Assembly: GCF_022698145.1 (NCBI RefSeq)
Contig: NZ_JALDAX010000011.1
Coordinates: 186,001 to 250,000 of the forward strand
Direction: 5' to 3'
DNA length: 64,000 bases
DNA from: Streptomyces spinosisporus
GTDB lineage: Bacteria; Actinomycetota; Actinomycetes; Streptomycetales; Streptomycetaceae
The stretch's first letter is position 1; every line of letters begins with the position of its first letter. The translations under genes and the position numbers were made by a program. Positions 37,435-57,109 of this stretch are shown here, piece after piece. A model generated the notes under the pieces. The model was given only the letters and a program-made list of their open reading frames with translations. It had not been told where the DNA came from and ran no database searches.

Positions 37435-37467
37435 GCCGGGCACGTCCCGCGACCGAAGGAGCCGATC

Positions 37468-43550: not shown

Positions 43551-44969
43551 CTACGGCGCCACGTCCTCCAGGCTGCGCCCGCTGGTCTCCTCCGCCCCGG
43601 CCGTGGCCGTGAGCGAGCCGATGAGGGCGACGGCGGCGAGGGTCACGAAGACCGTGCCGATCGCGCCGCCCGCGTAGACAGCACCCACCACGATCGGTCC
43701 GAGGACGATGCCCAGGCGGTTCATGGCGCCGCCCATGCTGGCGCCCAGCGCCCGGATCCGGGTGGGGAAGAGTTCGGGCGTGTAGAGGTAGAGGCAGATG
43801 TTGCAGCCGAAGAGGAAGACCGCGGCCAGGGACGTCCAGATCAGGACGCCTACGGCGGTGCCGGTCGCCGACAGGCCGAGGACGAGCAGGCAGAGCGCGG
43901 CGGCCGCGAAGCACCAGATCACCGTGTTGCGGCGGCCGACCCGGTCCACCGTGAGCGCGACGATCAGACAGCCGAGGAGTCCCGTGCAGCTGGTGACGGT
44001 CGAGTAGAGGAGGGCCGTCGACAAGTCCAGGTGGAAGTGGGACTTGTAGATGGTCGGCAGCCAGGACGTGATGCCGTAGTTCGCGAAGTAGCCGGTGAAC
44101 CAGAGGAGTCCGACGACGATCATGCGCTTGCGGTAGCGGTCGCCGAACAGCTCGCGCAGTCCGCCCTTGCCCTGCGGCCAGCCCTTGCCCTGGGGCGGCA
44201 CGACGGACGGCGTCGGCTCCGGCGGGGGCAGCGGGGCGCCCGTGATCCTCTCGACCTTCGTCTCGATCGACGCCATCGTGGCGAGCGCCTGCTCGTGCCG
44301 GCCGTGGTCCGCGAGCCAGCGCGGCGATTCGGGCACGTAGCGCAGGACCACGAGACTCAGGACGACCGGCAGGGCCGCGAGACCGAACATCCAGCGCCAG
44401 CCGAGCAGCGGCACCAGCCAGTAGGCGACCAGCGCGCCCGCGGTCAGGCCGACCGGGAAGACGAGCTCGAAGAGGAGCACGAACCGGCCGCGCTGGTGGG
44501 CGCGGGTGATCTCCGCGATGAACGTGGCGGCGATCGGCACCTCACCGCCGATGGCCATGCCCTGCACGAAGCGGACCGCCATGAACGGCTCGGGCGAGGT
44601 GCACAGCGTTAGCAGCAGATTGCACAGACTGGCAAGAGCGATGCAGCCCGCGATCACCTTGACGCGGCCGACCCGGTCGGCGAGCCGTCCCGAGACCAGC
44701 GCACCGCCCAGCATGCCGACCGAGCCGACGGTCATCAGAGCGGTGGTGTGGCCGGTGTCGAGGTTCCACTCGGTGCGCAGCTGGGGGAGCGCGTACGCGA
44801 TCAGGAGCTGGTCGAAGGCCTCGAAGAACGTGGCGGTGCCGACGACGAGCCGGACCATCACCTGCCAGCGGCACAGCGGCAGGCGTTCGAAGCGGGCGCC
44901 GATGGCGGCCGCGAGCGCCGGTGTGTCGCCGGGTCGCTCGGCGGCGGCGCGTTGAGCGTCGATCGTCAT
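43551..44969 (-). CDS. MFS transporter, sugar porter/aromatic acid:H+ symporter type
   Basis: A 472-residue transporter with twelve predicted membrane segments. Features are GRLADRVGRVKVIAG in the first inner loop, FVQGMAIGGEVPIAATFIAE, YVPESPRWLADHGRHEQAL after TM6 and LFPTRIRALGASMGGAMNRL. The PESPRWL motif is shared by the sugar-porter and aromatic-acid symporter groups. Being divergent from a large oxygenase operon, it probably imports its substrate. GGAGGCCATCC sets the start. Confidence 0.9.
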   Translation of the reverse strand: MTIDAQRAAAERPGDTPALAAAIGARFERLPLCRWQVMVRLVVGTATFFEAFDQLLIAYALPQLRTEWNLDTGHTTALMTVGSVGMLGGALVSGRLADRVGRVKVIAGCIALASLCNLLLTLCTSPEPFMAVRFVQGMAIGGEVPIAATFIAEITRAHQRGRFVLLFELVFPVGLTAGALVAYWLVPLLGWRWMFGLAALPVVLSLVVLRYVPESPRWLADHGRHEQALATMASIETKVERITGAPLPPPEPTPSVVPPQGKGWPQGKGGLRELFGDRYRKRMIVVGLLWFTGYFANYGITSWLPTIYKSHFHLDLSTALLYSTVTSCTGLLGCLIVALTVDRVGRRNTVIWCFAAAALCLLVLGLSATGTAVGVLIWTSLAAVFLFGCNICLYLYTPELFPTRIRALGASMGGAMNRLGIVLGPIVVGAVYAGGAIGTVFVTLAAVALIGSLTATAGAEETSGRSLEDVAP

Positions 44970-45107
44970 GGATGGCCTCCGGATCCGTGCGGCACGGTTT
45001 GGGGGACGGGACCGCACGGGAGGGTTCGGGCCGCGAGGGTACGACGGTATCCCGGTACCGGGCGGCTGTGAGGGCTGGGGCTGGGACGGCGGGCCCCAAT
45101 TCCATAG

Positions 45108-45130
45108 GTGCTGAACATCTCAGCGCTTAA
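45108..45130. promoter_or_regulatory. Candidate MarR operator, site 1
   Basis: GTGCTGAACATCTCAGCGCT, followed by TAA, is itself near palindromic: GTGCTGA and TCAGCGC around a 5-bp centre. It matches 18 of 23 positions with the inverted site at 45221-45243 and resembles the site at the marR promoter (55998). It lies 139 bp upstream of the MFS start. Confidence 0.55.
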
Positions 45131-45220: not shown

Positions 45221-45243
45221 TTAAGCCCTTAGATTTCTAGCAC
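45221..45243. promoter_or_regulatory. Candidate MarR operator, site 2
   Basis: On the minus strand the site reads GTGCTAGAAATCTAAGGGCT then TAA, 18 of 23 identical to site 1 in the opposite orientation, 90 bp away. It ends 38 bp before the aldehyde dehydrogenase ATG, a position fit for repression. Confidence 0.55.
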
Positions 45244-45280: not shown

Positions 45281-46768
45281 ATGCCGCGCATCCCCGCCGA
45301 CGAGATCCTCATCGCGGGCCGCTGGCGTCGCGGTCGCGGTGTGCCCATCCACACCGCGGACCCGGCCGATGGCACCGTTCTCACCACCGTCCACGCCGCC
45401 TCCGTCGAGGACGTGGAGGAGGCCGCGCATGCCGCCGCCGGGGCCGCCGCCGCGCCCGAATGGCGCGATCTGCTGCCGCACGAACGGGCGCGTGTCCTGC
45501 ACCGGATCGGCGACGCCATCGAGGAGCACGCAGAGGAACTGTCCGCGTTGCAGACCGCCGACACCGGCAAGACCCTCGGCGAGACCCGCGCCCTCGCGCT
45601 GAGCGCCGCGGGCACCTTCCGGTACACGGCGGCGGCGTTGGAGACCGCCGAGGATGCGCTCACGCCGTCACGCGGCCCGTATCTGACGATGAGCGTCCAC
45701 GAGCCGATCGGCGTCGTCGGCGCCATCAACCCCTGGAACTCGCCGATCGCCTCCGACGCGCAGAAGGTCGCGCCCGCACTGGCCGGCGGGAACGCGGTCC
45801 TGCTCAAACCCGCCGAGTGGACACCGCTGGTCTCCCTCGCCCTCGGCCGCATCGTCCACCGGGTGCTGGCAGGGGCCGGGCTGCCGACCGCGCTGCTCGC
45901 GGTGCTGCCGGGCAAGGGCAGCATCGTGGGCGACGCGATCGTCCGGCACCCGCTCGTCGGCCGCATCGGCTTCACCGGCGGCACGGGCACCGGACGCGGC
46001 ATCGCCCACGTGGCCGCCGACAAGCTCATCCCCGCCTCGCTCGAACTCGGCGGCAAGTCGCCGACGATCGTGCGCGAGGACGCCGACGTCGAACAGGCCC
46101 TCTCGGGTGTGATGTACGGGATCTTCTCCTCCAGCGGCCAGTCCTGCATCGCCGGATCGCGCCTCTTCGTCCAGGCCGGCCTCTACGACACCTTCGTCGG
46201 TGAGCTTGTCGACCGCGTAAGGAAGTTGAGAGTCGGTCCGGGCACCTCGCCCGACACGCAGGTGGCCCCGCTCGTGCACCACAGGCACCGCGACGCGGTC
46301 GCCGCGTACGTGGACCTGGCGCGCGAGGAAGGTGGCCGGGTGCTCTGCGGCGGCGCCGCACCGGAGGGGGAGGCGTACGCGAAGGGCGCCTACTACCTGC
46401 CCACCGTGATCGGCGGACTGCCGAACACCGCGCGCACCTGCCAGGAGGAGATCTTCGGCCCCGTACTCGTGGCACTTCGCTACGACGACGAGGACGAACT
46501 CGTCGCACAGGCCAACGACTCCGACTTCGGGCTCGCCTGCGGCATCTGGACCCGGGACGCGCGTGCCGCCTGGCGGCTCGGGCGGCGGATCGACGCCGGG
46601 ACCGTCTGGATCAACACGTACAAGCAGTTCTCCATCTCCACCCCCTTCGCGGGGATGAAGGACTCCGGACTCGGCACCGAGAAGGGACGCGAGCTGATCC
46701 GCGCCTACCAGCGGCAGAAGTCCCTGTACTGGAGCACCGACTCCACACCGCTGCCCTGGGCCAACTGA
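45281..46768 (+). CDS. Aldehyde dehydrogenase (NAD(P)+-dependent)
   Basis: A 495-residue ALDH superfamily enzyme: PIGVVGAINPWNSPIASDAQ, the catalytic Glu motif LELGGKSPTIV, the catalytic Cys in SSGQSCIAGSR and EEIFGPVLVALRYDDEDE. The overall look is that of betaine-aldehyde/hydroxymuconic-semialdehyde dehydrogenases. As first gene of the operon it may oxidise a semialdehyde produced by ring cleavage or by the TPP enzyme. GGAGG lies seven bases upstream of the ATG, downstream of candidate MarR and iron-box sites. Confidence 0.92.
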   Translation: MPRIPADEILIAGRWRRGRGVPIHTADPADGTVLTTVHAASVEDVEEAAHAAAGAAAAPEWRDLLPHERARVLHRIGDAIEEHAEELSALQTADTGKTLGETRALALSAAGTFRYTAAALETAEDALTPSRGPYLTMSVHEPIGVVGAINPWNSPIASDAQKVAPALAGGNAVLLKPAEWTPLVSLALGRIVHRVLAGAGLPTALLAVLPGKGSIVGDAIVRHPLVGRIGFTGGTGTGRGIAHVAADKLIPASLELGGKSPTIVREDADVEQALSGVMYGIFSSSGQSCIAGSRLFVQAGLYDTFVGELVDRVRKLRVGPGTSPDTQVAPLVHHRHRDAVAAYVDLAREEGGRVLCGGAAPEGEAYAKGAYYLPTVIGGLPNTARTCQEEIFGPVLVALRYDDEDELVAQANDSDFGLACGIWTRDARAAWRLGRRIDAGTVWINTYKQFSISTPFAGMKDSGLGTEKGRELIRAYQRQKSLYWSTDSTPLPWAN

Positions 46769-46791
46769 CCCTCTCGTCTGGGAGATTGCAC

Positions 46792-47730
46792 ATGAACCAC
46801 CCCCCGATCGCCCGGCTGCGCGCGCTGCGCTCGGTCGAGCTGCTCACCCCGAACTTCGCCGAGGCCGCCGGCTTCTACGAGGAGGCGTGGGGCCTGGAGG
46901 TCGTCGAGGCCGGGCACAGTGCGAGCTGGCTGCGCGGCACCGGCACCGAGCACCACGCCCTCCAGCTGACCCGCTCCGAGAAGATCGGCCTCGGCCGCCT
47001 CGCCTTCGCCGTCGGCACACCCGCCGAGGTGGACGAGGCCGCACGCCGACTGGAGGCACGCGGCATCACTCTCGTCACCGAGCTCGGCCCCCTCGACCAG
47101 GTCGGCGGCGGCTACGGGCTGCGCTTCCACGACCTCGACGGACGCCTCGTCGAACTCTCCGCCGACACCTGGGCGGTCGCCGCGCGCGGCCGGGACGAGG
47201 CGCTGCCCGTCGGCGTCACGCACGCGGTCCTCAACACCACGGACATCGACGCGGCCGTCGCCTTCTACCGCGATGTGCTCGGCATGCGGGTCTCGGACTG
47301 GTCCGAGCACCAGATGGCGTTCCTGCGCTGCAACACCGACCACCACTGCATCGCCTTCAACCAGGCGCCCTGGGTCTCCCTCAACCACGTGGCGTACGAG
47401 ATGAGTTCGCTCGACCACTTCATGCGCGGACTCGGCCGGCTCCGGCACCACGGCATCACTCCGGAGTGGGGCCCCGGCCGGCACGGCCCCGGCAACAACA
47501 CCTTCTCCTACTTCACCGACCCGACGGGTCTGGTGTGCGAGTACACGTCCGAGGTCGCGCAGATCGTCGAGGACGCGTGGATCTGCCGTACCTGGCGGCG
47601 GACCCCTGAACTGTCCGACACCTGGGGCACCGCGGGCCTGCCCTCGAAGCTGATCCGCGCCCACATGGTGGGCACATCCGACGGCAGCCCCGTCGTCCCG
47701 CCCGTCGACGCCGAAGGAGTCGCAGCATGA
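46792..47730 (+). CDS. VOC-family extradiol dioxygenase-like protein
   Basis: A 312-residue protein with two vicinal-oxygen-chelate modules, about residues 12-125 and 140-255. In the second, His144 (VTHAVLNT), His199 (LNHVAYEM) and Glu250 (VCEYTSEV) form the 2-His-1-carboxylate iron site of type I extradiol dioxygenases such as catechol 2,3-dioxygenase. It could open a catechol-type ring by meta-cleavage. It starts at ATG 46792 behind GGGAG and overlaps the next gene by ATGA. Confidence 0.85.
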   Translation: MNHPPIARLRALRSVELLTPNFAEAAGFYEEAWGLEVVEAGHSASWLRGTGTEHHALQLTRSEKIGLGRLAFAVGTPAEVDEAARRLEARGITLVTELGPLDQVGGGYGLRFHDLDGRLVELSADTWAVAARGRDEALPVGVTHAVLNTTDIDAAVAFYRDVLGMRVSDWSEHQMAFLRCNTDHHCIAFNQAPWVSLNHVAYEMSSLDHFMRGLGRLRHHGITPEWGPGRHGPGNNTFSYFTDPTGLVCEYTSEVAQIVEDAWICRTWRRTPELSDTWGTAGLPSKLIRAHMVGTSDGSPVVPPVDAEGVAA

Positions 47731-48524
47731 GCAGGGTGCGCAAGGTCGGTCTCATCGGCTGGGGAGCCATCGGCCGCGTGGTCGGAGGGGCCGTCGCCGC
47801 CGGTGGCGTGCCGGGCGCCGAACTGGTGGCCGTCGTCGACAACCGGCCCCTCGGAGACGCGGTCCCCGCACCGCAGATGACCGTGGAACAGGTCGTCGAA
47901 CACTGCGACTTGATCGTCGAGGCGGCCGGTCAGGGTGTCGTACGGGGCTGGGGCGAGACCATCCTCGCCTCCGGCACCGACCTCCTCGTGGCGTCCACGG
48001 GAGCCCTGACCGACGAGGAGCTGTCGAAGAAGCTGCTGACCACCGGACCCGGGCGGGTGTATTTCACCGGGGGAGCGGTCGGCGGACTCGACGTGCTCCA
48101 GGCGGTCCGCGCCATGGGGCCGCTGAGCGAGATCAGGCTGACCACCACCAAGCTGCCCTCGACGCTCGAACAGCCGTGGATGGACGAGCAGTTGCTGACC
48201 GCGATGCGGACCGCGACCGGGCCTGTCGAGGTGATGCGCGGCACCGCGCGCGAGGTGCCGGTCAGGTTCCCGAAGTCGACCAACGTCGCCGCCTCCGTGG
48301 CGCTCGCGGTAGGGGACCTCGACGCGGTGCGGGTCAGCGTCGTCGCCGACCCGGCCGCCGTGCACACCTCGCACGTCATCGAGGCGAACGGACCGCAGGG
48401 CTCGTACCGCTTCGAGGTCAGGCACCAGCCGGACCCGGCCAACCCCGCCACCAGCCAGGTCGTTCCGTACGCGGTCCTGCGCTCCCTCGCGGCACTCGCC
48501 GGGCGTTCGGGGCAGATCCTGTGA
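47727..48524 (+). CDS. Aspartate dehydrogenase-like protein (NadX/DUF108)
   Basis: A 265-residue protein: Rossmann VGLIGWGAIGRVVGGAVAAG, IVEAAGQGVVR, and a C-terminal DUF108 domain with FTGGAVGGLDVLQAVRAMG, FPKSTNVAASVALAVGD and HVIEANGPQGSYRFEV. The NSTNVAA-like segment and the His in SHVIEA are typical of L-aspartate dehydrogenases. Here, in an aromatic catabolic operon, it may deaminate or reduce another substrate rather than make NAD precursors. It is coupled on both sides (ATGA, GTGA). Confidence 0.87.
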   Translation: MSRVRKVGLIGWGAIGRVVGGAVAAGGVPGAELVAVVDNRPLGDAVPAPQMTVEQVVEHCDLIVEAAGQGVVRGWGETILASGTDLLVASTGALTDEELSKKLLTTGPGRVYFTGGAVGGLDVLQAVRAMGPLSEIRLTTTKLPSTLEQPWMDEQLLTAMRTATGPVEVMRGTAREVPVRFPKSTNVAASVALAVGDLDAVRVSVVADPAAVHTSHVIEANGPQGSYRFEVRHQPDPANPATSQVVPYAVLRSLAALAGRSGQIL

Positions 48525-49330
48525 CGGCGTATGGCATCGCCGGGCTGCACCTCGAACAGGCGGGCGCCGGTGGACCGCTGGTGCTGTGCCTGCACGGCAT
48601 CGGGTCGTCCTCCGCCGCCTTTTCGCCCCAACTACAGGCGCTTGCGGGCAACTTCAGGGTGCTTGCGTGGGATGCGCCGGGTTACGCCAAGTCGGCGGAC
48701 CCGGAAAGGGAGTTGAGCCTCGACGACTACGCCGACGCCGCGGCCGCGGTCATCCGCGCACATGACGGCGGCGGTGGCGCACATGTCCTCGGCGTCTCCT
48801 GGGGCGGCGTGATCGCGCTGCGGCTCGCCACCCGCCACCCGGACCTCGTCGCCTCGCTGACGATCGCCGACTCCACCCCCGGTTCCGGCACGACCCCAGA
48901 GAAGGCCGCTGGGATGCGCGCCCGCATCGCCGAACTCGCCGAGCTCGGACCGCGCGCCTTCGCCGAGCGGCGCGGCCCCCGCCTGCTCTCCGCCGGAGCG
49001 CCGAACGAGCTTCTCCGGCGCGTCGTCGACACCATGGCCGACTCGATCCGCCTGCCCGGCTACGGATACGCGGCCGAGTCCATGGCCACCACCGACCTGC
49101 GCGGAGAACTCGCCCGGGTCACCGCGCCCACCCTCGTCCTGTGCGGCGACCAGGACCGCGTCACCGGTCCCGAAGCCTCACAGGTCCTGGCCGGCGGTCT
49201 GCACAGGACCGCGTACGTGATCGTCAAGGACGCCGGTCACCTGGCCAACCAGGAGCAGCCCGAGCACTTCAACGCCTGGCTGCTGTCCCACCTGCACATC
49301 GTCACCAACTCCCGGACCAGCAAGGGATGA
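48521..49330 (+). CDS. Alpha/beta hydrolase, meta-cleavage-product-hydrolase-like
   Basis: A 269-residue enzyme: oxyanion motif LCLHGIGSSSAAF, RVLAWDAPGYAKS, nucleophile elbow VLGVSWGGVIALRLA, acid VLCGDQDRVTGP and His in DAGHLANQEQPEHF. The fold and context, next to an extradiol dioxygenase-like gene, suit a C-C bond hydrolase acting on a ring-cleavage product, though an ester or lactone hydrolase is equally compatible. It starts at GTG 48521, overlapping the preceding stop. Confidence 0.87.
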   Translation: MTAYGIAGLHLEQAGAGGPLVLCLHGIGSSSAAFSPQLQALAGNFRVLAWDAPGYAKSADPERELSLDDYADAAAAVIRAHDGGGGAHVLGVSWGGVIALRLATRHPDLVASLTIADSTPGSGTTPEKAAGMRARIAELAELGPRAFAERRGPRLLSAGAPNELLRRVVDTMADSIRLPGYGYAAESMATTDLRGELARVTAPTLVLCGDQDRVTGPEASQVLAGGLHRTAYVIVKDAGHLANQEQPEHFNAWLLSHLHIVTNSRTSKG

Positions 49331-49857
49331 CCACCATGCCGATCACCACCACCGAGTACGACAACGGCGGCGACCTCGCCAAGTACACCGACGCCCTCAT
49401 CGCCACCAAGAACTCCCGCGAGCCCGACTGGGGCACCCTGTCCTTCCAGGAGAAGGCCGGCCCGCAGTACAAGCGCGCACAGATCCGCTACGTCGGCTCC
49501 GGCGCCACCGGCAACCACGAGAACGACAACCGCATCCTCCCCTCCGGCGGCTTCACCTTCTCCAACATGCTGCTGCCGCCCGGCGCCGAGGGCCCGGCCC
49601 ACACCCACCACGACGTCGAGGAGGCCTTCTTCGTCCTGGAGGGCCAGGTCCGCGTCGGCATCCACCGCGGTCCGGACGAGGTCGAGTACCGCACCCTCGG
49701 CTACCGCGACATGATCGTGGTGCCGGCCGGGGTGACCCGTTCGCTGAAGAACGAGGGCGACACGGACGCACTGTTCTGCGTGATCATCGGCACGCAGAAG
49801 CCGCAGGTGCCGACCTACCCCGAGTACTCGCCGCTGTACGGCATCACCCGTGACTGA
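49327..49857 (+). CDS. Cupin domain protein
   Basis: A single-domain cupin of 176 residues: GPAHTHHDVEEAFFVLEGQV with the HxHH...E metal-binding set, and RDMIVVPAGVTRSLKNEGDT as the second motif. Catalytic role unknown; small cupins in catabolic operons can be dioxygenases, isomerases or decarboxylases. The ATG at 49327 overlaps the previous stop, but ATG 49336 has a better placed AAGGG and may be the true start. Confidence 0.85.
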   Translation: MTTMPITTTEYDNGGDLAKYTDALIATKNSREPDWGTLSFQEKAGPQYKRAQIRYVGSGATGNHENDNRILPSGGFTFSNMLLPPGAEGPAHTHHDVEEAFFVLEGQVRVGIHRGPDEVEYRTLGYRDMIVVPAGVTRSLKNEGDTDALFCVIIGTQKPQVPTYPEYSPLYGITRD

Positions 49858-50593
49858 GCAGCCGCGAACGGTCGTCGTCACCGGTGGGGGCCGTGGTCTG
49901 GGGGAGGCCATGGCCCGCCGGGCCGGCGCGGACGGCTACCGGGTCGTCGTCGCCGAGCTGAACGAGCAGTGGGGCCGACGGACGGCTCGGGCCGTCCAAG
50001 AGGCGGGCGGCGAGGCGGAGTTCGTACCACTGGACGTCGCCGACCCGGCCTCGGTCGAGGCACTGGCCGCCTGGCTGGCACCTCGCGGCGCCGTCCACGG
50101 ACTGGTCAACAACGCGGCACTCGCCAACGGCGTCGGCGGCAAGTACTTCCAGGACATCGACGTCGAGGTGTGGGACCGGCTGATGGCGGTCAACGCGCGC
50201 GGGCCCTGGCTCGTCGCCAAGCACCTGCTCCCGCTGATGGCGTGGCCCGGCCGCATCGTCAACATCGCCTCGGACGCCGCCCTCTACGGCTCACCGCGGC
50301 TCGCCCACTACATCGCCTCCAAGGGCGCCGTCATCGCGCTGACCCGGGCGATGGCCCGTGAGCTGGGCCCCGAGGGCATCACGGTGAACGCCGTGGCGCC
50401 CGGCCTGACGGAGATCGAGGCGACCGAGACCGTACCCGCCGAACGCCATGCGCTGTACGCGCAGAACCGGGCGATCGCACGGCCCCAGCAGGCCGACGAC
50501 CTGGTCGGGACGGTGTCGTTCCTCCTCGGAGCGGAGTCCGGCTATCTCACGGGTCAAGTGATCGCCGTCAACGGCGGCTTCACGATGCACTGA
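49850..50593 (+). CDS. SDR family oxidoreductase (canonical)
   Basis: A 247-residue SDR with TGGGRGLGEAMARRA, LVNNAALANG, catalytic Ser in NIASDAALYG, and HYIASKGAVIALTRAMA providing Tyr and Lys, plus YLTGQVIAVNGGF at the end. It should be an active NAD(P)-dependent dehydrogenase, for instance for a cis-diol or hydroxy acid formed by the Rieske oxygenase. It starts at GTG 49850, overlapping the cupin stop by eight bases. Confidence 0.9.
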   Translation: MTEQPRTVVVTGGGRGLGEAMARRAGADGYRVVVAELNEQWGRRTARAVQEAGGEAEFVPLDVADPASVEALAAWLAPRGAVHGLVNNAALANGVGGKYFQDIDVEVWDRLMAVNARGPWLVAKHLLPLMAWPGRIVNIASDAALYGSPRLAHYIASKGAVIALTRAMARELGPEGITVNAVAPGLTEIEATETVPAERHALYAQNRAIARPQQADDLVGTVSFLLGAESGYLTGQVIAVNGGFTMH

Positions 50594-50634
50594 CCCACCC
50601 CTGCGTCCCGCACCACCACTTCCAAGGAGTTCTC

Positions 50635-51426
50635 ATGGACCTCGGCCTCGCCGACCGCACCGTGCTGGTCACCGGGGGCAGTTCGGGTGTCGGCCTGGCC
50701 ACCGTCCGGGCCCTGCTCGACGAAGGCGCCAACGTCGCCACCTGCGGCCGCGACGCCGAACGGCTCGCCAAGGCGGCCGCGCACCTGGGCGCCGGTTCCG
50801 ACCGGCTGTTCCACAGCGTGTGCGACGTACGGGACTCCGACGCCGTGGGCGACTTCGTCGAGCGCGCGGCGGACCGCTTCGGCGGGCGCCTCGACGCGCT
50901 CGTCAACAACGCGGGCCAGTCCCGTATGAAGCCGCTCGACGAGACGACCGCCGAGGACTGGCGCGACGAACTGGAGCTGAAGTTCGCCGGCGTGCTCAAC
51001 CCCCTTGCCGCCGCCCGCGGTTACCTGCGCGCCTCGGACGCGGCGGCGATCGTCAACGTCAACGCCGTCCTCGCCAAGCAGCCGGAGACCCGGCTGATCA
51101 CGACGAGCGCCGCGCGCGCCGGCATCCTCAACCTCTCCAAGTCCCTGGCCACCGAGCTCGCCAAGGACGGCATCCGCGTCAACTCCGTCTGCCTCGGCCT
51201 CATCGACACCGGCCAGTGGACGCGCCGCCACGCGGCCACCGCCGGCGACCTCGGCCACGAGGAGTGGCAGGCCGAGCTCGCCGCCGACCGGGGCGTCGCG
51301 CTCGGCCGGCTGGGCCGCGCCGAGGAGGTCGCGTACGCCATCGTCTCCCTGCTCTCCCCACGCGCCTCGTACATCACCGGAACCAGCATCGACGTCTGCG
51401 GCGGAGTCGGCCGCGGCATCCTCTGA
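50635..51426 (+). CDS. SDR-like protein with degenerate active site
   Basis: A 263-residue SDR fold protein with an intact cofactor motif (TGGSSGVGLATVRAL) and VNNAGQSRMKP, but the catalytic region is changed. The usual Ser position reads NVNAVLA (residues 141-147), and the YxxxK position reads T157-S-A-A-R161 in ITTSAARAGILNLSKS. The C-terminal cofactor contacts (NSVCLGLIDTG, YITGTSIDVCGG) remain. It may bind NAD(P) without classical SDR catalysis, or use other residues. AAGGAG precedes the ATG. Confidence 0.87.
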   Translation: MDLGLADRTVLVTGGSSGVGLATVRALLDEGANVATCGRDAERLAKAAAHLGAGSDRLFHSVCDVRDSDAVGDFVERAADRFGGRLDALVNNAGQSRMKPLDETTAEDWRDELELKFAGVLNPLAAARGYLRASDAAAIVNVNAVLAKQPETRLITTSAARAGILNLSKSLATELAKDGIRVNSVCLGLIDTGQWTRRHAATAGDLGHEEWQAELAADRGVALGRLGRAEEVAYAIVSLLSPRASYITGTSIDVCGGVGRGIL

Positions 51427-51436
51427 GGAGCCCTCC

Positions 51437-53077
51437 ATGACCCCTGTGACCCACCGCAATGGAGGCGAACTCCTCGCCGCCCACCTCACCTCGCTGGGCA
51501 TCGACGCCGTCTTCGGCATTGTCTCCGTGCACAACCTTCCGCTGGTGGAGGCCATCGAGGCCGACCCGGGGCTGCGTTTCGTACCCGTACGCCACGAGGC
51601 CACCGCCGTGAACGCCGCCGACGCGTACGGCCGCGCACGCGGCAGCATCGGCTGCGCGCTCACCTCGACCGGCACCGGCGCGGGCAACGCGGCCGGATCC
51701 CTCGTCGAGTCCCTGTCCGCGGGGACGGCCGTCCTGCACATCACGGGACAGGTCGAATCCGCGTACCTCGGCAGTGGGCGGGGCTTCATCCACGAGACGA
51801 AGGACCAGCTCGGGATGCTCACCGCGGTGTCGAAATACGCCGCGACCGTCACCTCCACCCGTGACGCGGGGCGCATCCTGCGCGAGGCGTCCGCCGCCGC
51901 CCTTACCGCTCCCGCCGGGCCCGCGAGCGTCGAGTGGCCGATCGACCTGCAGTACGCGGCACAGCAAGACGACGGTTCCACGCCTCAGGCCGTCGAGCCC
52001 CCGGTCCCCGACAAGGCACAACTCGCCGCCGCACGCGCGCTGTTGGCGTCCGCCCGGCAACCGCTGATCTGGGCGGGCGGCGGCGCGAACACCGCGCGGG
52101 CCGAACTCCTGGCACTCGTCGAGGCGACCGGCGCGGGTCTGCTCACCTCCAACTCCGGGCGTGGCGCCGTACCGGAGGACCACGAGCAGGTCATCGGCAA
52201 CTTCGCCACCACGCCCGCCGTTCGCGCCCTGCTGAAGGACGCCGACGTCCTCGTCACCGTCGGCACCCACTTCCGCTCCAACGAGACCGCCGACTACGGG
52301 CTCGAACTGCCCACCGCCCACATCCAGATCGACATCGACACCGCCGCACTCGGCCGCGTGTACCCGGCCCGGCACGCACTCCACGGTGCCGCGTCCGCCG
52401 TCCTGCCCGAACTCACCACGGCAGCCAGGCGCGCGAACGCCGCCTGGACGGACCGTGTTCGTCGCGTCCGCGAAGAGGTCCGCGCCACACTGCACGACAC
52501 CATCGGCCCCCAGGCCGCCCTCTGCGACGCCCTCGCCGACGCCCTGCCCCGTGGTGCCGTCGTCGCCCGCGACGTCACCATCCCGTCCTCCTCCTGGGGC
52601 AACCGCCTGCTGCCGCTGCACGATCCGCGCGCCAACGTCTTTCCGCGCGGCGGCGGCATCGGGCAGGGCCTCGGCATGGGCATCGGCGCGGCCGTCGCCC
52701 GCCCGGACGAACCGACCGTCGTCATCGCCGGCGACGGCGGACTCGCGGTCCACCTCGGCGAACTGCTCACACTGGCCCAGGAGCGACCGCGCCTGACACT
52801 CGTCGTCTTCAACGACGGCGGCTACGGCGTGCTGCGCAACATGCAGGACAAGTACAGCGAACGCCGCTCCGGAGTCGACCTGTTCACCCCGGACTTCGCC
52901 ACGCTCGCCACCGCCTGCGGCCTGACGTACGCGCGCATCTCCGACGCGTCCGACGCCGCGGCCGTCATCAAAGCCGCCGTCGCCCATGACGGACCCACGC
53001 TCGTCGAGGTGGACCTCGCCGCGCTCGGCCCCATGAAGAACCCGTTCACCCCGCCCGTGAAGATCCCCACCGCGTAG
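51437..53077 (+). CDS. Thiamine diphosphate-dependent enzyme (acetolactate synthase/benzoylformate decarboxylase-like)
   Basis: A 546-residue TPP enzyme with the three-domain layout. The N-terminal Pyr domain has the cofactor-activating Glu54 in VRHEATAVNAADAYGRA; a central domain follows; and the PP domain has GDGGLAVHLGELLTLAQ leading to VVFNDGGYG (the GDG...N metal/diphosphate motif). Members decarboxylate 2-oxo acids or make/break acyloins. In this operon a 2-oxo acid intermediate giving an aldehyde for the ALDH is a coherent guess. GGAGCCC lies before the ATG. Confidence 0.9.
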   Translation: MTPVTHRNGGELLAAHLTSLGIDAVFGIVSVHNLPLVEAIEADPGLRFVPVRHEATAVNAADAYGRARGSIGCALTSTGTGAGNAAGSLVESLSAGTAVLHITGQVESAYLGSGRGFIHETKDQLGMLTAVSKYAATVTSTRDAGRILREASAAALTAPAGPASVEWPIDLQYAAQQDDGSTPQAVEPPVPDKAQLAAARALLASARQPLIWAGGGANTARAELLALVEATGAGLLTSNSGRGAVPEDHEQVIGNFATTPAVRALLKDADVLVTVGTHFRSNETADYGLELPTAHIQIDIDTAALGRVYPARHALHGAASAVLPELTTAARRANAAWTDRVRRVREEVRATLHDTIGPQAALCDALADALPRGAVVARDVTIPSSSWGNRLLPLHDPRANVFPRGGGIGQGLGMGIGAAVARPDEPTVVIAGDGGLAVHLGELLTLAQERPRLTLVVFNDGGYGVLRNMQDKYSERRSGVDLFTPDFATLATACGLTYARISDASDAAAVIKAAVAHDGPTLVEVDLAALGPMKNPFTPPVKIPTA

Positions 53078-53089
53078 GGAGGCCCCACC

Positions 53090-54037
53090 ATGAGCAGCAC
53101 CGAAGAGCAGGAGCTCGACCTCCTGGTCCACCGGATGACCTGGGAGGCCGAGGGCGTCCTCTCCGTCGAACTGACCCACCCCGACGGCAAACCGCTCCCG
53201 GCCTGGACACCCGGCGCGCACCTGGACCTTCATGTCGGCGGCCACGTGCGGCAGTACAGCCTGTGCGGCGACCCGGCGAACAGCGCCGTGTACCGGCTCG
53301 GCATCCTCAACGAGCCGTCCTCACGCGGCGGTTCGCGCCATGTGCACAGCAGCCTGCGGCCCGGCCACACTGTGCGGGTGGCCGGGCCGCGCAACCACTT
53401 CGCGCTGGAACCCGCCGCCTCCTACGTCTTCATCGCCGGCGGCATCGGCATCACACCCATCCTGGCGATGGCCCGACAGGCACAACGCGACGGCACCCCC
53501 TATCGGTTGGTCCACGGAGGGCGCACACGGGCGTCGATGGCGTTCGGCAGCGAGCTCGCCGCGCTCACCGGCGGCCAGGTCGGCTTCGTACCGCAGGACG
53601 AGCAGGGCCACATCGATCTGGCGGGCATCCTCGCGGACCTTCCCGCCGACGCCCTCGTGTACTGCTGCGGCCCGGAACCACTGTTGCAGGCGGTCGAAGA
53701 CGCCGTCCCCGAAGCGCAGTTGAGAACCGAGCGGTTCGCCGCTCCGGTCGTGGAACGCGGCGCCGACGACAGCTCCTTCGACGTCGAATGCCGTACGTCG
53801 GGGGTGACCCTGAACGTCGGCCCCGACACCTCCATCCTGGAGGCCGCCGAGAACGCAGGCCTTGACGTCAACTCCTCGTGCCGTGACGGAATCTGCGGCT
53901 CCTGCGAGACCCGCGTCCTCGCCGGTACCCCCGATCACCGCGACTTCCTGCTCACCGAGGCCGAGCACGCGGCGGGCCGGACGATGATGATCTGCGTCTC
54001 GCGCTGCGTCTCGGACCGACTGGTCCTGGACCTCTGA
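53090..54037 (+). CDS. Phthalate dioxygenase reductase/VanB-type oxidoreductase
   Basis: A 315-residue reductase with an FMN-binding barrel (RQYSLCGDP), a NAD-binding domain (FIAGGIGITPILAMAR, YCCGPEPLLQAVEDA) and a C-terminal plant-type [2Fe-2S] ferredoxin (CRDGICGSCETRV and the distal Cys in MMICVSRC). It passes electrons from NADH to the Rieske oxygenase encoded at 54352. Order FMN-NAD-Fe/S is that of VanB and phthalate dioxygenase reductase. It follows the TPP gene by 12 bp. Confidence 0.92.
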   Translation: MSSTEEQELDLLVHRMTWEAEGVLSVELTHPDGKPLPAWTPGAHLDLHVGGHVRQYSLCGDPANSAVYRLGILNEPSSRGGSRHVHSSLRPGHTVRVAGPRNHFALEPAASYVFIAGGIGITPILAMARQAQRDGTPYRLVHGGRTRASMAFGSELAALTGGQVGFVPQDEQGHIDLAGILADLPADALVYCCGPEPLLQAVEDAVPEAQLRTERFAAPVVERGADDSSFDVECRTSGVTLNVGPDTSILEAAENAGLDVNSSCRDGICGSCETRVLAGTPDHRDFLLTEAEHAAGRTMMICVSRCVSDRLVLDL

Positions 54038-54125
54038 TTTCTCTCGGTCGCCGCGTGTCCGGACCCCGCCGACACCCGACCGCTCCGCAACCCCTCTGGA
54101 CCTCTGAGACCCGTACGGATACCTG

Positions 54126-54350
54126 ATGCCCGACACCTGGCCCCACCTGGACCCCCACCAGACCCGAGACCACGAACCCACCCCGTACGAGCTGAAGCTC
54201 GCGCGCACCCTCGAGGACATCTTCACCAACGACGGCCATGAGCTCAGCGACGTGCTCGCGGGCCTCAACTCCCGTCAGCTGCACACCCCCACGGGAGAAC
54301 CCTGGACCGAGGAGTCCTTCCGCGCCGAGATGCACCGCCTGGGAGCCTGA
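54126..54350 (+). CDS. Small recombinase-like helix domain protein
   Basis: A 74-residue protein: TPYELKLARTLEDIFTNDGH, then ELSDVLAGLNSRQLHTPTGE and PWTEESFRAEMHRLGA. It resembles the helical DNA-recognition segment of serine recombinases (the GxxTPxGxxWTxxSFxxxL pattern) but stands alone. Such short proteins occur beside Rieske oxygenase genes; their role is not established. It sits directly before the oxygenase gene (1-bp gap). No strong ribosome binding site before the ATG. Confidence 0.75.
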   Translation: MPDTWPHLDPHQTRDHEPTPYELKLARTLEDIFTNDGHELSDVLAGLNSRQLHTPTGEPWTEESFRAEMHRLGA

Positions 54351-54351
54351 C

Positions 54352-55386
54352 ATGACGCTTTCCACCCACGACACCGCCGAGCACATCTACGCCCACGGCC
54401 TGCGCAACCAGTGGCACCCCGTCGTGCCGTCGCACTTCGTCGAGCCCGGCGGCATGCGCAAGGTGACCGCCCTCGGCGAGAACTGGCTGCTCTTCCGCAG
54501 GTCCGACGGCACCCTCTCGATGCTCGCCGACCGCTGCCCGCACCGCGGCGCCCCGCTGTCGCTCGGCAAACACCTGGGCGACCGGGTCGCCTGCTGGTAC
54601 CACGGCGTCGAGGTCGACGGCACCGGCAAGGTCACCTCCGTGCCCGGCCTGCCCGGCTGCAATCTGGAGGGCAAGACCCTCGTCACCTCCCTGCCCGTGC
54701 GCGAGGTGGGCGGCGCGATCCTCGCGTACTTCGGCGACGAGGAGCACCCCGAACCGGTCGACCTCACGCTCCCGGACCCGCTGGCCGACGACGGCATCGA
54801 CGCCTTCCTCTGCTACGCCGAATGGAACGTCCCGTGGCGCTACGCCATGGAGAACCTGCTCGACCCGATGCACGGCGCGTTCCTGCACAACGAGTCCCAC
54901 ACGATGTTCGCCGGGGACACGACGGCGAAGTTCCGCATCCGGGAGACCGACCGCGGCTACTTCTTCGAGAAGACCGACCAGCGCGGTGTGAACTTCGACT
55001 GGGTCGAGCTGTGCCACACCGGCGTCGACTGGGTGGACCTGTCCATCCCCTACCCGCCCTCGGCCGGACCCGGCGGCCCCTTCGGCATCGTCGGCATGGC
55101 CTGCCCGGTGGACGCGGGCCGTACCGGCGTCTTCTTCTGGCGCTACCGCAAGGTGCGGGACTGGCAGCGGGACACCTGGCGCTTCCTCTACAAGACCCTC
55201 ATCGAGGCCCGTCACTGGGAGGTCCTGGAGCAGGACCGCGTCATGCTCGAAGCCATGCCGCACGATGCCGACCAGCGCGAGAACCTCTACCAGCACGACC
55301 TCGGCATCGTCCGCCTCCGCCGTCTCTACCAGGCGCGGGCCAGGCAGCAGTCGAAGGCGGTACCGCCCGCCGGCGCGGCCGTATGA
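54352..55386 (+). CDS. Rieske non-heme iron oxygenase, terminal oxygenase subunit
   Basis: A 344-residue oxygenase. The Rieske cluster ligands are Cys62 and His64 (RCPHRGAPL) and Cys81 and His84 (CWYHGVEV). The mononuclear iron site is in NLLDPMHGAFLHNE with Asp171, His174 and His179. The single-subunit size is that of vanillate demethylase/phthalate-type oxygenases. It works with the VanB-type reductase encoded upstream and probably starts the pathway by demethylation or ring hydroxylation. It ends 19 bp before the convergent marR gene. Confidence 0.92.
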   Translation: MTLSTHDTAEHIYAHGLRNQWHPVVPSHFVEPGGMRKVTALGENWLLFRRSDGTLSMLADRCPHRGAPLSLGKHLGDRVACWYHGVEVDGTGKVTSVPGLPGCNLEGKTLVTSLPVREVGGAILAYFGDEEHPEPVDLTLPDPLADDGIDAFLCYAEWNVPWRYAMENLLDPMHGAFLHNESHTMFAGDTTAKFRIRETDRGYFFEKTDQRGVNFDWVELCHTGVDWVDLSIPYPPSAGPGGPFGIVGMACPVDAGRTGVFFWRYRKVRDWQRDTWRFLYKTLIEARHWEVLEQDRVMLEAMPHDADQRENLYQHDLGIVRLRRLYQARARQQSKAVPPAGAAV

Positions 55387-55405: not shown

Positions 55406-55972
55406 TCAGCTCGGGTTCGGCCCGGCCTCCACGGCCTCGTTGGACGTCACCGCCTCGTCGGACTCCACGATCGAACGCTCCAACTTGGAGAGCAGACCGC
55501 CGAGTTGACGCCGCTCGGCGGGTGACAGCCCGCCGAGCATCCGGCGTTCGTTCTCCAGGTGGGCGGCGAAGACCTCGTCGATCTTCTTCAACCCGGCCTC
55601 GGTCAGGCGTGAGTACACGACCCGGCGGTCCTCGGCGTCCCGCTCCCGCACGAGCAGCCCGTCCTTCTCGAGCCGGTCCAGGCGCAGGGTCACCCCGGCC
55701 GACGAGATCAGCCCCGAGGCGGCGAGCTGTCCCGCCGTGAGCCGGTACGGCGCCCCCGACCGGCGCAGCGCGGTGAGCACGTCGAACCCGGCGACGGACA
55801 GGCCGTGCGCATCGAGCTGCGAGGTCATCCGCGACTGGTACTGCAGATACGAGCGGTGCAGCCGGGCCAGCACCTCCAGCGGCGTCGTGTCGAGCTCGGG
55901 CCGCTCACGGGCCCAGTCGTCGACGATCCCCGAAACGGCGTCGGGCCGCTTCGCCGACCTGCGCTGCGCCAT
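55406..55972 (-). CDS. MarR family transcriptional regulator
   Basis: A 188-residue regulator with a winged helix: FDVLTALRRSGAPYRLTAGQ, LAASGLISSAGVTLRLDRLE, KDGLLVRERDAEDRRVVYSR. Flanking helices form the dimerisation region. Start ATG 55972 has GAGGGGA upstream; ATG 55990 is possible but lacks a site. It converges on the oxygenase operon. A site in its own promoter (55998) resembles two sites in the operon/MFS promoter, so it likely represses all three units until a pathway compound binds. Confidence 0.9.
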   Translation of the reverse strand: MAQRRSAKRPDAVSGIVDDWARERPELDTTPLEVLARLHRSYLQYQSRMTSQLDAHGLSVAGFDVLTALRRSGAPYRLTAGQLAASGLISSAGVTLRLDRLEKDGLLVRERDAEDRRVVYSRLTEAGLKKIDEVFAAHLENERRMLGGLSPAERRQLGGLLSKLERSIVESDEAVTSNEAVEAGPNPS

Positions 55973-55997
55973 GTCTTCCCCTCGCGGCATATATCTG

Positions 55998-56087: not shown

Positions 56088-56525
56088 TCAGCCCCGGTCC
56101 GGGTCGAATTCCATCACCTGAGTGAGACGGATGTTGTTGCCCGAGGGGTCGCGGAACGACGTGTCGATGCCGTACGGCTGCACCGTCGGCGGGTCGTTGA
56201 ACTCGACACCGCGGGCGGACAGCTCGTCGTAGGCGGCCTTGCAGTCGTCCGTCTCCAGGAACAGTGTGCCGCCCGCACCCTTGGCCACCAGATCGGAGAG
56301 CTGGGCACTGGCGGTCTCGTCCAGCATGGGCTGCCGCGGCACGGGCATCAGCACCAGCGCCGGACCGTCCCCACCGGGCGGGCCGACGCACAGCCACCGG
56401 AAGCTCCATGCCTCCATGGTCACGTCCGCCCGGACCTCCCAGCCCAGCTTGTCGGTGTAGAAGGCGAGCGCCTCGTCCTGGTCGTGCACCCAGAACTGCG
56501 CATTGGCGATCTTGATGCTTGTCAT
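56088..56525 (-). CDS. VOC family (glyoxalase/bleomycin-resistance-like) protein
   Basis: A 145-residue single VOC-fold protein: IKIANAQFWVHDQDEALAFY, DKLGWEVRADVTMEAWSFRW, DPSGNNIRLTQ at the end. Such proteins range from lyases to antibiotic-binding resistance proteins; no specific role can be given. AAGGAG precedes the ATG. It follows the araC-type gene by 34 bp and is probably co-transcribed with it. Confidence 0.87.
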   Translation of the reverse strand: MTSIKIANAQFWVHDQDEALAFYTDKLGWEVRADVTMEAWSFRWLCVGPPGGDGPALVLMPVPRQPMLDETASAQLSDLVAKGAGGTLFLETDDCKAAYDELSARGVEFNDPPTVQPYGIDTSFRDPSGNNIRLTQVMEFDPDRG

Positions 56526-56559
56526 GGCCGCTCCTTGGTCGACTTGCCTGGGAACGACG

Positions 56560-57003: not shown

Positions 57004-57109
57004 TGTGCGGCGGGCGGGCGCCGCCGGTCGTGGGGGTGCGGGTGGCCGGCCGGGTGGGTCTGCTGTGATGGGGAAGGGGTACCGGCCTGAGCGAGCGGTG
57101 GGAGCGGTG

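What the first reader, a model, noticed from the sequence alone, without database searches (positions are those of the whole stretch)
45281..55386. Eleven-gene catabolic operon with no recognisable known pathway
Aldehyde dehydrogenase, extradiol-type VOC protein, aspartate dehydrogenase-like protein, alpha/beta hydrolase, cupin, normal SDR, degenerate SDR, TPP enzyme, VanB-type reductase, small helix protein and Rieske oxygenase follow each other with overlaps or short gaps, plus a divergent MFS importer and a MarR gene. A Rieske oxygenase, an extradiol enzyme and a C-C hydrolase suggest meta-cleavage, but the hydratase and aldolase of that route are absent, and an aspartate dehydrogenase with a TPP decarboxylase points to a nitrogen-containing or 2-oxo-acid intermediate. 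From memory, unverified, a partly similar set (ALDH, AspDH, TPP enzyme, SDRs, hydrolase, cupin) exists in Pseudomonas aeruginosa near PA3504-PA3511 without a firm function.
Basis: partly seen in the sequence, partly recalled or inferred. Interest (0 to 1): 0.65.

Follow-up and report, generated by a model that had tools for sequence, protein, structure and literature searches.

The report
Conserved aromatic-breakdown operon, possibly kynurenate
This soil bacterium carries an eleven-gene operon, shared across distant bacteria, that most likely opens a double-ring compound such as the tryptophan waste product kynurenic acid, a pathway known from old biochemistry for which our searches found no named genes.

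Summary
The operon is real: eleven open genes on one strand, a divergent MFS gene and a convergent MarR gene. All eleven recur in the same order in 13 of the 14 fetched same-genus loci with a close VOC copy. Nine enzymes recur in 63 of 80 named loci and on plasmids or chromids of further Proteobacteria. Catalytic residues are conserved; the second SDR lacks Tyr and Lys in 72 of 72 aligned copies.

The fourteenth locus is a natural swap: it lacks Rieske, reductase, HTH_62 and first SDR, and has an HpaB-type phenol hydroxylase and flavin reductase beside the seven remaining genes. A Vibrio plasmid may be a second case. So Rieske, reductase and first SDR most likely make a catechol; the other seven enzymes work after it.

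Extradiol cleavage followed by double-bond reductase, TPP decarboxylase and aldehyde dehydrogenase matches, enzyme type by step, the kynurenate pathway of the 1960s (steps recalled; partly seen in three papers). The substrate is inferred: no assay, and no tryptophan genes found in the flanks. HTH_62 appears to follow the Rieske gene rather than the pathway.

The parts
43551..45017 (-). divergent MFS transporter, likely substrate importer
   Evidence: PF07690/PF00083; an MFS homologue (45-74% identity) in 12 of the 13 full-set loci L017-L029, the contig of the 13th (L021) ending there
45117..45130 (-). candidate MarR operator 1 (TTAAGCGCTGAGAT, 1 mismatch to TTAAGNNCTTAGAT)
   Evidence: inference
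45221..45234 (+). candidate MarR operator 2 (TTAAGCCCTTAGAT), the site the search pattern was written from
   Evidence: 9-mer AAATCTAAG in 9 of 15 homologous upstream regions; inference
45281..46768 (+). aldehyde dehydrogenase (ALDH)
   Evidence: PF00171 3.6e-152; C289 and E255 conserved in >=97%, n=65
46792..47730 (+). VOC-fold extradiol dioxygenase
   Evidence: PF00903; H144, H199, E250 plus H184/H185, H231, Y240 conserved, n=67; best PDB 3b59 1.8e-60
47727..48524 (+). aspartate-dehydrogenase-like enzyme (DUF108)
   Evidence: PF01958 6.2e-25, PF03447; H216 conserved, n=68
48521..49330 (+). alpha/beta hydrolase
   Evidence: PF00561; S93, D212, H240 conserved, n=72; best PDB relatives are esterases (4uhc 2.8e-22), 3kxp among them at 4.4e-16
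49336..49857 (+). small single-domain cupin
   Evidence: PF07883/PF00190; H89, H91, E95/E96 kept, motif-2 position is R135, n=78
49850..50593 (+). SDR1, probable cis-dihydrodiol dehydrogenase
   Evidence: PF13561; YxxxK in 73 of 73; no separate copy in L030 or L043
50635..51426 (+). SDR2, atypical SDR, proposed C=C reductase
   Evidence: NF005468 344.9 bits over cut-off 266; no Tyr/Lys in 72 of 72
51437..53077 (+). TPP-dependent enzyme, proposed 2-oxo-acid decarboxylase
   Evidence: NF005470 710.6 bits over cut-off 495; E54 conserved, n=69
53090..54037 (+). FNR/VanB-type reductase with C-terminal [2Fe-2S]
   Evidence: PF00175, PF00111
54126..54350 (+). HTH_62 small protein, proposed oxygenase partner
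   Evidence: PF20552 8.7e-32; beside Rieske in 15 of 15 inspected HTH_62-bearing loci of the genus
54352..55386 (+). Rieske oxygenase, single-subunit (alpha-only) type
   Evidence: PF00355, PF19112; C62/H64/C81/H84, H174/H179/D295, D171 conserved, n=79; model pLDDT 80
55406..55990 (-). MarR regulator
   Evidence: PF12802 1.6e-12; homologue in 11 of the 13 stretches L017-L029 (41-85%) and beside L030 (50%)

Best explanation
The operon encodes an aerobic pathway that opens the benzene ring of a fused N-heteroaromatic acid, most likely kynurenate (4-hydroxyquinoline-2-carboxylate), then dismantles the leftover pyridine ring. Step 1: Rieske plus reductase (with HTH_62 as partner) make a 7,8-cis-dihydrodiol. 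2: SDR1 oxidises it to the 7,8-diol. 3: the VOC enzyme cleaves the 8-8a bond, leaving a 2-oxo-acid side chain on dihydroxypicolinate. 4: SDR2 reduces the side-chain double bond. 5: the TPP enzyme decarboxylates the 2-oxo acid to an aldehyde. 6: ALDH makes 5-(2-carboxyethyl)-4,6-dihydroxypicolinate. 7: cupin, alpha/beta hydrolase and AspDH-like enzyme open that ring and deal with its nitrogen. The MFS gene imports the substrate and MarR represses. SHOWN: the gene set, its conservation, intact catalytic residues, and one clear swap of Rieske+reductase+HTH_62+SDR1 for a phenol hydroxylase. INFERRED: dioxygenation to a catechol (strong), order of steps 3-6 (moderate), kynurenate as substrate (moderate), step 7 (weak). 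Rough confidences: architecture 0.75; TPP/ALDH acting after ring cleavage 0.6; kynurenate or a close quinoline-2-carboxylate 0.4. (Architecture was 0.8 before I re-read the calls and weakened the Vibrio case.)
For: Set conserved: 13 of 14 fetched close-VOC loci have all eleven genes; nine enzymes in 63 of 80 named loci (a looser count gave 64); plasmid or chromid records of Caballeronia, Klebsiella, Acinetobacter, Novosphingobium, Burkholderia, Cupriavidus and, with a distant long cupin or one not detected, of Nitratireductor, Pseudosulfitobacter, Paracoccus. Active sites intact. Module swap: L030 keeps ALDH-cupin-VOC-AspDH-ABH-SDR2-TPP (50-65% identity) and has HpaB (PF11794 4.6e-90) plus a flavin reductase (9.7e-42) next on the same strand, with no Rieske, reductase, HTH_62 or separate SDR1; its genome has no HTH_62 and its best Rieske match is partial, 5e-18. 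A phenol hydroxylase replacing Rieske AND SDR1 means both serve to make a catechol. Weaker second case: Vibrio plasmid L043 has the same seven enzymes, no Rieske in the plasmid record, and an FAD monooxygenase of the 3-hydroxybenzoate/salicylate hydroxylase family nearby. Two unlike VOC types (23-26% identical) fill the same slot with the same catalytic residues. Reductase, decarboxylase and ALDH after extradiol cleavage is the recalled kynurenate sequence; two of its intermediates are named in a compound table of PMC11364965 (passage), bacterial kynurenate breakdown to glutamate and alanine in PMC11354673 (passage), the 7,8-dihydroxy step in a reference title of PMC5610271 (passage). AspDH, and RidA in L054, suit an imino-acid intermediate.
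Against: No assay. No tryptophan dioxygenase, formamidase or kynureninase, and no class-I aminotransferase motif, was seen in the cluster loci fetched by then; the formamidase query found no copy but its own and the motif scan is crude, so this absence is soft. Tryptophan dioxygenase is in 147 of 150 genomes of the genus and in 31 of the 39 cluster genomes given, so it tells nothing. The Rieske fold is as close to dicamba and methylxanthine demethylases (Z 25.2, 24.7) as to carbazole dioxygenase (24.3), and 2-oxoquinoline 8-monooxygenase is lower (22.4); Foldseek ranks phthalate dioxygenase first. ALDH scores best against betaine-aldehyde and HpaE models, below cut-off in all 25 rows shown. 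AspDH is below all 8 NCBIfam cut-offs listed (best 145 of 184). Against the swap reading: Nitratireductor L037 has both a Rieske gene and an FAD monooxygenase of the same family, so in Vibrio the monooxygenase need not replace anything; the Vibrio chromosome was not searched; beside L030 a further FAD-binding hydroxylase and a hydrolase-carboxymuconolactone-decarboxylase gene lie on the other strand. Two loci (L125, L134) show no ALDH or AspDH in 21 kb. TPP homologues occur in other settings (L038, L032), and 4 of 7 plasmid VOC hits opened as such lie in other gene sets.
Confidence: 0.4

Rival explanations
1. A meta-cleavage pathway for a single-ring aromatic acid, homoprotocatechuate-like: Rieske and SDR1 (or HpaB) make a catechol, VOC cleaves it, ALDH oxidises the semialdehyde, and TPP, SDR2, AspDH, cupin and hydrolase replace the usual hydratase and aldolase.
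For: ALDH scores 437.8 bits to HpaE and VOC 93.8 to HpaD; an HpaB-family hydroxylase replaces the Rieske module in L030; Foldseek's first Rieske match is phthalate dioxygenase.
Against: Both scores are far below the equivalog cut-offs (638 and 321); no isomerase, hydratase or aldolase in the operon; needs an unknown role for both the TPP enzyme and AspDH.
Confidence: 0.25
2. An aryl-glyoxylate route: TPP enzyme and ALDH act first on an isatinate- or benzoylformate-like acid, giving an aromatic aldehyde then an acid that Rieske and VOC open.
For: TPP plus ALDH pairs of this kind are established for mandelate (recalled).
Against: No isatin-hydrolase or mandelate-type enzyme among the eleven genes; TPP and ALDH stay when the ring-activating module is swapped (L030), though that alone does not fix their order.
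Confidence: 0.12
3. Breakdown of an oxygen heterocycle (flavonoid or chromone A-ring), as in the ifc and fde clusters, with AspDH merely aminating released oxaloacetate.
For: ifc uses a glyoxalase-type enzyme for 8-hydroxydaidzein and a cupin for the leftover 4-pyranone (PMC11069340, sections 16-17); a GH3 gene sits beside the Novosphingobium cluster.
Confidence: 0.1
4. HTH_62 is a DNA-binding regulator of the operon rather than part of the oxygenase.
For: Pfam name 'recombinase-like helix-turn-helix'; in three Alphaproteobacteria it sits ahead of ABC transporter genes, not next to Rieske.
Against: It follows the Rieske gene, not the pathway: absent from the Rieske-less genome G094, kept with Rieske and reductase in the remnant L185; MarR or IclR genes already fill the regulator slot.
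Confidence: 0.2

Closest known systems
Bacterial kynurenate ('quinoline') pathway of tryptophan breakdown, 7,8-hydroxylation then ring cleavage (Taniuchi and Hayaishi 1963, Horibata et al. 1961; only titles seen, inside reference lists; steps recalled)
   Same: Same succession of enzyme types: oxygenase, dihydrodiol dehydrogenase, extradiol cleavage, side-chain reduction, decarboxylation, aldehyde oxidation
   Different: Known from Pseudomonas extracts; no genes found in my searches, so sequence membership cannot be tested
ifc isoflavone cluster of Variovorax V35 (PMC11069340, passages and sections 16-17) and fde naringenin operon of Herbaspirillum (PMC11303751, passages)
   Same: Ring A of a fused bicycle made a 7,8-diol, attacked by a glyoxalase-fold dioxygenase; a cupin acts on the remaining heterocycle (ifc)
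   Different: Flavin monooxygenase start, oxygen heterocycle; in the parts read no AspDH or TPP enzyme is named; sequences not compared
iad indole-acetate locus of Variovorax CL014 (PMC12633357, abstract and passages)
   Same: Rieske-started breakdown of an N-heteroaromatic acid, MarR regulators
   Different: Two-subunit alpha3beta3 Rieske enzyme, product anthranilate; the words cupin, thiamine and aspartate dehydrogenase do not occur in its main text
SDR 'Q9HYA2', PDB 3lf1/3lf2
   Same: Nearest solved relative of SDR2 (3.9e-66); recalled as having an atypical catalytic centre
   Different: Function not known to me; the paper is not held
Acinetobacter baumannii A1S_0956-0958 (PMC5757984, passages)
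   Same: AspDH, ALDH and acetolactate-synthase-like genes in the order seen in locus L186; listed with values 2.18-2.44 in the mucin-utilisation table, under amino acid catabolism
   Different: No pathway is named in the passage; identity with L186 rests on order and names only

Membership tests
Kynurenate (quinoline) pathway | Rieske-type oxygenase, dihydrodiol dehydrogenase, extradiol enzyme, side-chain reductase, TPP decarboxylase and ALDH all in one operon | tested here: met
   enzyme families present; that these are the steps is recalled, and the roles of SDR2 and TPP are inferred
Kynurenate (quinoline) pathway | Turnover of kynurenate to 7,8-dihydroxykynurenate | not testable with these tools
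   needs enzyme assay
Kynurenate (quinoline) pathway | Genetic link to kynurenate-forming genes | tested here: not met
   no kynA, kynB, kynU hit or class-I aminotransferase motif in the flanks (limited sensitivity); not required if the substrate is imported
Classical meta-cleavage pathway | 2-oxopent-4-enoate hydratase and aldolase, or oxalocrotonate branch enzymes | tested here: not met
   none among the eleven genes; the rest of the genome was not searched for them
Homoprotocatechuate (hpa) pathway | HpaD and HpaE equivalog scores | tested here: not met
   93.8 of 321.4 and 437.8 of 638.35 bits
iad indole-acetate pathway | alpha and beta Rieske subunits | tested here: not met
   single 344-aa Rieske, no beta subunit among the eleven genes
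ifc/fde flavonoid pathway | group A flavin monooxygenase starts the pathway | tested here: not met
   none in the operon; one lies at 37468-38790, outside it
ifc/fde flavonoid pathway | VOC and cupin homologous to IfcB/FdeC and IfcD | tested here: inconclusive
Rieske oxygenase | [2Fe-2S] ligands CxH/CxxH and 2-His-1-Asp iron site | tested here: met
   n=79; model matches Rieske enzymes, Z up to 25.2; roles of the residues recalled
VOC extradiol dioxygenase | 2-His-1-Glu iron ligands | tested here: met
   H144, H199, E250, n=67; roles recalled
Aspartate dehydrogenase | Pfam Asp_DH_C and a conserved histidine | tested here: met
   87.7 of 27 bits; H216, n=68; catalytic role recalled
Aspartate dehydrogenase | NCBIfam aspartate dehydrogenase cut-off | tested here: not met
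   best 145.1 of 184; below all 8 listed
Classical SDR (for SDR2) | catalytic Tyr and Lys | tested here: not met
   absent in 72 of 72

The most novel reading that the evidence does not exclude
The operon is the genetic basis of bacterial kynurenate breakdown, giving genes to enzymes known only by activity since the 1960s (as far as I recall and could search), together with a small protein (HTH_62) that works as a partner of a Rieske oxygenase and an SDR without Tyr/Lys that reduces a carbon-carbon double bond. The pathway is built of swappable entry modules (Rieske; HpaB; perhaps FAD monooxygenase) on one fixed seven-enzyme core, so xanthurenate-type phenols would enter through the hydroxylase variants.
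Probability: 0.35. Interest if true: 0.8.

Novelty: new variant of a known kind. Interest (0 to 1): 0.62.

Why it matters
If right, it gives testable gene assignments for the breakdown of a neuroactive tryptophan metabolite, in soil Streptomyces and in records of bacteria that live with people (Klebsiella, Acinetobacter). Even if the substrate differs, a nine-enzyme pathway conserved between Streptomyces and Proteobacteria, with an entry module that nature has swapped at least once, lets a named set of mutants and a short substrate list decide the question. It also supplies a concrete lead for PF20552 and for the atypical SDR family.

Tried and rejected
Literature (ten searches, all used): gene-type terms gave 1 paper and 6 papers, of which only PMC5757984, in both lists, was opened later; PA3505 terms gave 0; RefSeq product names gave 0; fde/ifc terms led to PMC11069340 and PMC11303751, while PMC4440368 held none of the terms sought in it; kynurenate plus gene-cluster terms gave 0; kynurenate or dihydroxypicolinate phrases gave 22, 21 listed, none on catabolic genes for kynurenate by title; kynuren + Rieske + dioxygenase + operon + catabolism gave 4, only the auxin paper opened. 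Most subscription journals are not in that library. Four papers sought by id were not held.

Indole-acetate (iad) and classical meta-cleavage were rejected on gene content. TDO near the cluster: 16 of 20 requested test stretches came back; only the Zobellella contig had the length of the cluster's contig, with a kynA-kynB-kynU set about 30 kb away (names by sequence, not family search); not counted as a link. Structures of the Rieske enzyme and cupin: good folds, no substrate told. Matching the VOC to IfcB/FdeC through Burkholderiaceae: 8 of 294 genomes had a homologue, none looking ifc-like by eye; genes of L167 were poorly called. First neighbour survey was spoiled by spurious antisense ORFs and replaced by a codon-trained one, which still calls genes poorly in low-GC loci (L079, L120, L135). 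Alignment A1 wrongly included an FAD protein of L030 and was dropped for A2. The count of 64 of 80 allowed cross-matches between the two SDRs; a stricter placement gave 63 of 80.

Full report
WHAT IS THERE. Eleven open genes lie on the + strand from 45281 to 55386: aldehyde dehydrogenase, VOC-fold enzyme, AspDH-like enzyme, alpha/beta hydrolase, cupin, SDR1, SDR2, TPP enzyme, FNR/VanB-type reductase with a ferredoxin domain, HTH_62 small protein and a 344-residue Rieske oxygenase. An MFS gene is divergent and a MarR gene convergent.

HOW CONSERVED. In 150 genomes of the genus, the window's included, the VOC gene has 22 close copies (64-100% identity) and many homologues at 37-47%. Fourteen loci of the close group other than the window were fetched: 13 (L017-L029) hold all eleven genes in the same order, though in L029 several are in pieces, and the fourteenth (L030) differs, see below. 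The six other loci fetched with them lack the set. In the class the cupin was found in 6 of 296 genomes, all of this genus. In the class of Aeromonas cavernicola (Gammaproteobacteria) the Rieske gene was found in 1 of 274 genomes and the cupin in 1 of 239, both the centre genome itself, so the set is patchy there.

A scan of named genomes with a Rieske alignment found 583 relatives, of which the best 80 were returned. Nine enzymes (all but the reductase and HTH_62) can each be placed in 63 of 80; 7 of the other 17 loci are under 17 kb long, but L125 and L134 are full-length and show no ALDH or AspDH. Median identity to the window is 60% for ALDH, 50% Rieske, 49% SDR1, 47% SDR2, 44% cupin and TPP, 33% AspDH, 32% hydrolase and 25% VOC (copies passing a length filter). 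Plasmid or chromid records of Novosphingobium, Caballeronia, Burkholderia, Cupriavidus, Klebsiella and Acinetobacter carry the set (the record of L054 ends inside it); those of Nitratireductor, Pseudosulfitobacter and Paracoccus do too, but with a longer, distant cupin gene at the edge. The redox partner changes: FNR-type reductase in Streptomyces, Cupriavidus sp. EM10 and one Caballeronia; ferredoxin plus FAD-dependent oxidoreductase in Klebsiella, Acinetobacter and other Caballeronia; FAD-dependent oxidoreductase plus a neighbour (flavodoxin-domain protein) in the Alphaproteobacteria named above (names as annotated).

ACTIVE SITES. Over 65 to 79 aligned copies each, the window's included, the Rieske [2Fe-2S] ligands and iron site, the extradiol 2-His-1-Glu site, the hydrolase triad, the ALDH Cys/Glu, the TPP glutamate and an AspDH histidine are kept in at least 97% (the roles of these residues are recalled). 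SDR1 has YxxxK in 73 of 73. SDR2 has neither Tyr nor Lys in 72 of 72 and its nearest solved relative is 3lf1. The cupin keeps HxH and E of motif 1 but has Arg where motif 2 usually has His. HTH_62 aligned in only 26 copies with 10 conserved positions.

THE MODULE SWAP. L030 (genome G094) has ALDH, cupin, VOC, AspDH, hydrolase, SDR2 and TPP genes (50-65% identity), a MarR homologue (50%), and next on the same strand a 4-hydroxyphenylacetate-3-hydroxylase family gene and a flavin reductase fused to a GntR-type domain. Rieske, reductase, HTH_62 and a separate SDR1 are absent; the weak SDR1 match is taken to be the SDR2 gene, since the placement shows no second SDR. The genome's best Rieske match is partial at 5e-18 and it has no HTH_62. 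On the opposite strand beside it lie an FAD-binding hydroxylase and a fused hydrolase-carboxymuconolactone decarboxylase, so another aromatic pathway adjoins. The Vibrio plasmid L043 keeps the same seven enzymes, has no Rieske in the plasmid record (the chromosome was not searched), and an FAD monooxygenase lies beyond an IclR gene; but Nitratireductor L037 has a monooxygenase of that family as well as Rieske, so this case is weaker. Replacement of the four-gene block by a phenol hydroxylase says that the block converts an unhydroxylated ring to a catechol and that the other seven genes act from the catechol on. It argues for dioxygenation plus diol dehydrogenation rather than demethylation. 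It rests on one clear locus and one doubtful one.

HTH_62. In 150 genomes of the genus 24 match, 22 of them strongly (E 2e-24 or better); 21 of the 22 are among the 22 with the close VOC gene. The chance of such an overlap is 2e-23 by the hypergeometric test, which ignores shared ancestry. The two exceptions: G094 has the core without Rieske and without HTH_62; G015 (L185) is a remnant with Rieske 86%, HTH_62 73%, reductase 73%, MarR 77% and only a 67-residue TPP piece. So the gene follows the oxygenase, not the pathway. In the three Alphaproteobacteria it sits in the same gene run but ahead of ABC transporter genes, about 2.7 kb from the Rieske gene. The tblastn misses those annotated copies, so its miss in L043 means little.

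WHY KYNURENATE. From memory, the pathway in Pseudomonas extracts goes: kynurenate, 7,8-dihydrodiol, 7,8-dihydroxykynurenate, cleavage at 8-8a to 5-(3-carboxy-3-oxopropenyl)-4,6-dihydroxypicolinate, reduction to the oxopropyl compound, decarboxylation to the aldehyde, oxidation to the carboxyethyl compound, then glutamate, alanine and acetate. What I could see in print: a review states that pseudomonads turn kynurenate into glutamate, alanine and organic acids and cites Horibata et al. 1961 (PMC11354673, passages); another paper cites Taniuchi and Hayaishi 1963 on 7,8-dihydroxykynurenic acid (PMC5610271, passages); a compound table names two intermediates (PMC11364965, passages). The operon has one gene of a suitable type for each of the first six steps. 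A TPP decarboxylase and an aldehyde dehydrogenase after extradiol cleavage, in place of hydratase and aldolase, is unusual and is what this route needs. The ring left over carries nitrogen, which gives the AspDH-like enzyme a role on a 2-imino-4-oxo acid, close in shape to iminosuccinate; the RidA gene in L054 fits. The hydrolase's solved relatives include alpha-(N-acetylaminomethylene)succinate hydrolase (3kxp, 4.4e-16; its place in pyridine breakdown recalled), behind several esterases. In the isoflavone pathway a cupin acts on a 2-hydroxy-4-pyranone, the oxygen analogue of a dihydroxypicolinate ring (PMC11069340, sections 16 and 17). All of this is analogy.

WHAT SPEAKS AGAINST. No kynurenine genes seen in the flanks of the loci fetched (limited sensitivity); TDO presence in the genomes is uninformative (31 of the 39 asked; 147 of 150); predicted structures do not choose a substrate; several enzymes score below curated equivalog cut-offs; TPP and VOC homologues exist in other settings. 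Single-ring meta-cleavage remains possible (0.25).

REGULATION. The MFS-ALDH gap holds two copies of a TTAAGNNCTTAGAT-like palindrome, the only two in the window at up to 2 mismatches, where 0.06 are expected; 1 of 100 shuffles also reached two. The pattern was written from one of the two sites, so the second, with one mismatch, is the real evidence. Related 9-mers recur upstream of ALDH in up to 9 of 15 regions, which share ancestry, and L030 has CTAAG..CTTAG palindromes. They are candidates for the MarR operator.

VERDICT. A real pathway conserved across distant bacteria; architecture fairly sure, substrate a reasoned proposal that a few enzyme assays would settle.

Noticed in passing
window 36733-38790 (+): Mycothiol maleylpyruvate isomerase-type gene (PF11716) followed by a flavin monooxygenase (PF01494), suggestive of a gentisate route, 6.5 kb upstream of the operon.
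   Followed up: partly
window 56091-57961: Single-domain VOC gene and AraC-family gene on the - strand, then a divergent alpha/beta hydrolase; no link to the operon seen.
   Followed up: no
L186 (Acinetobacter baumannii NZ_CP043459.1): The set with ferredoxin and IclR; AspDH-ALDH-TPP order equals A1S_0956-0958, listed at 2.18-2.44 in a mucin-utilisation table (PMC5757984, passages).
   Followed up: partly
L049/L051/L052 (Klebsiella records): The set lies between speB and tkt among housekeeping-type genes, so these records labelled plasmids look chromosomal.
   Followed up: no
L039-L041, L051, L053, L186: The extradiol slot is filled by a different VOC type, 23-26% identical to the window's over the whole alignment (L186 31% over 156 residues): non-orthologous displacement.
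   Followed up: partly
L185 (genome G015): Decayed copy: Rieske, HTH_62, reductase and MarR remain with a TPP fragment.
   Followed up: yes
L043 (Vibrio nigripulchritudo plasmid): TPP gene annotated in two pieces and FAD monooxygenase frame interrupted in the record; sequencing error or decay not told apart.
   Followed up: no
L168-L172: Homologues of the window's VOC in Burkholderiaceae; these five loci share a set with an MhpA-like monooxygenase, an FAH-like gene and an amidohydrolase-like gene (names judged by eye), another possible pathway.
   Followed up: no
L030 116-2469 (+): Beside the HpaB variant, an FAD-binding hydroxylase and a fused hydrolase-carboxymuconolactone decarboxylase, protocatechuate-type genes by family.
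   Followed up: no
L102 (Sphingomonas echinoides) 259-6339: A second, apparently two-subunit Rieske gene set with VOC and hydrolase about 4 kb from the cluster (names by similarity to window proteins and by eye).
   Followed up: no
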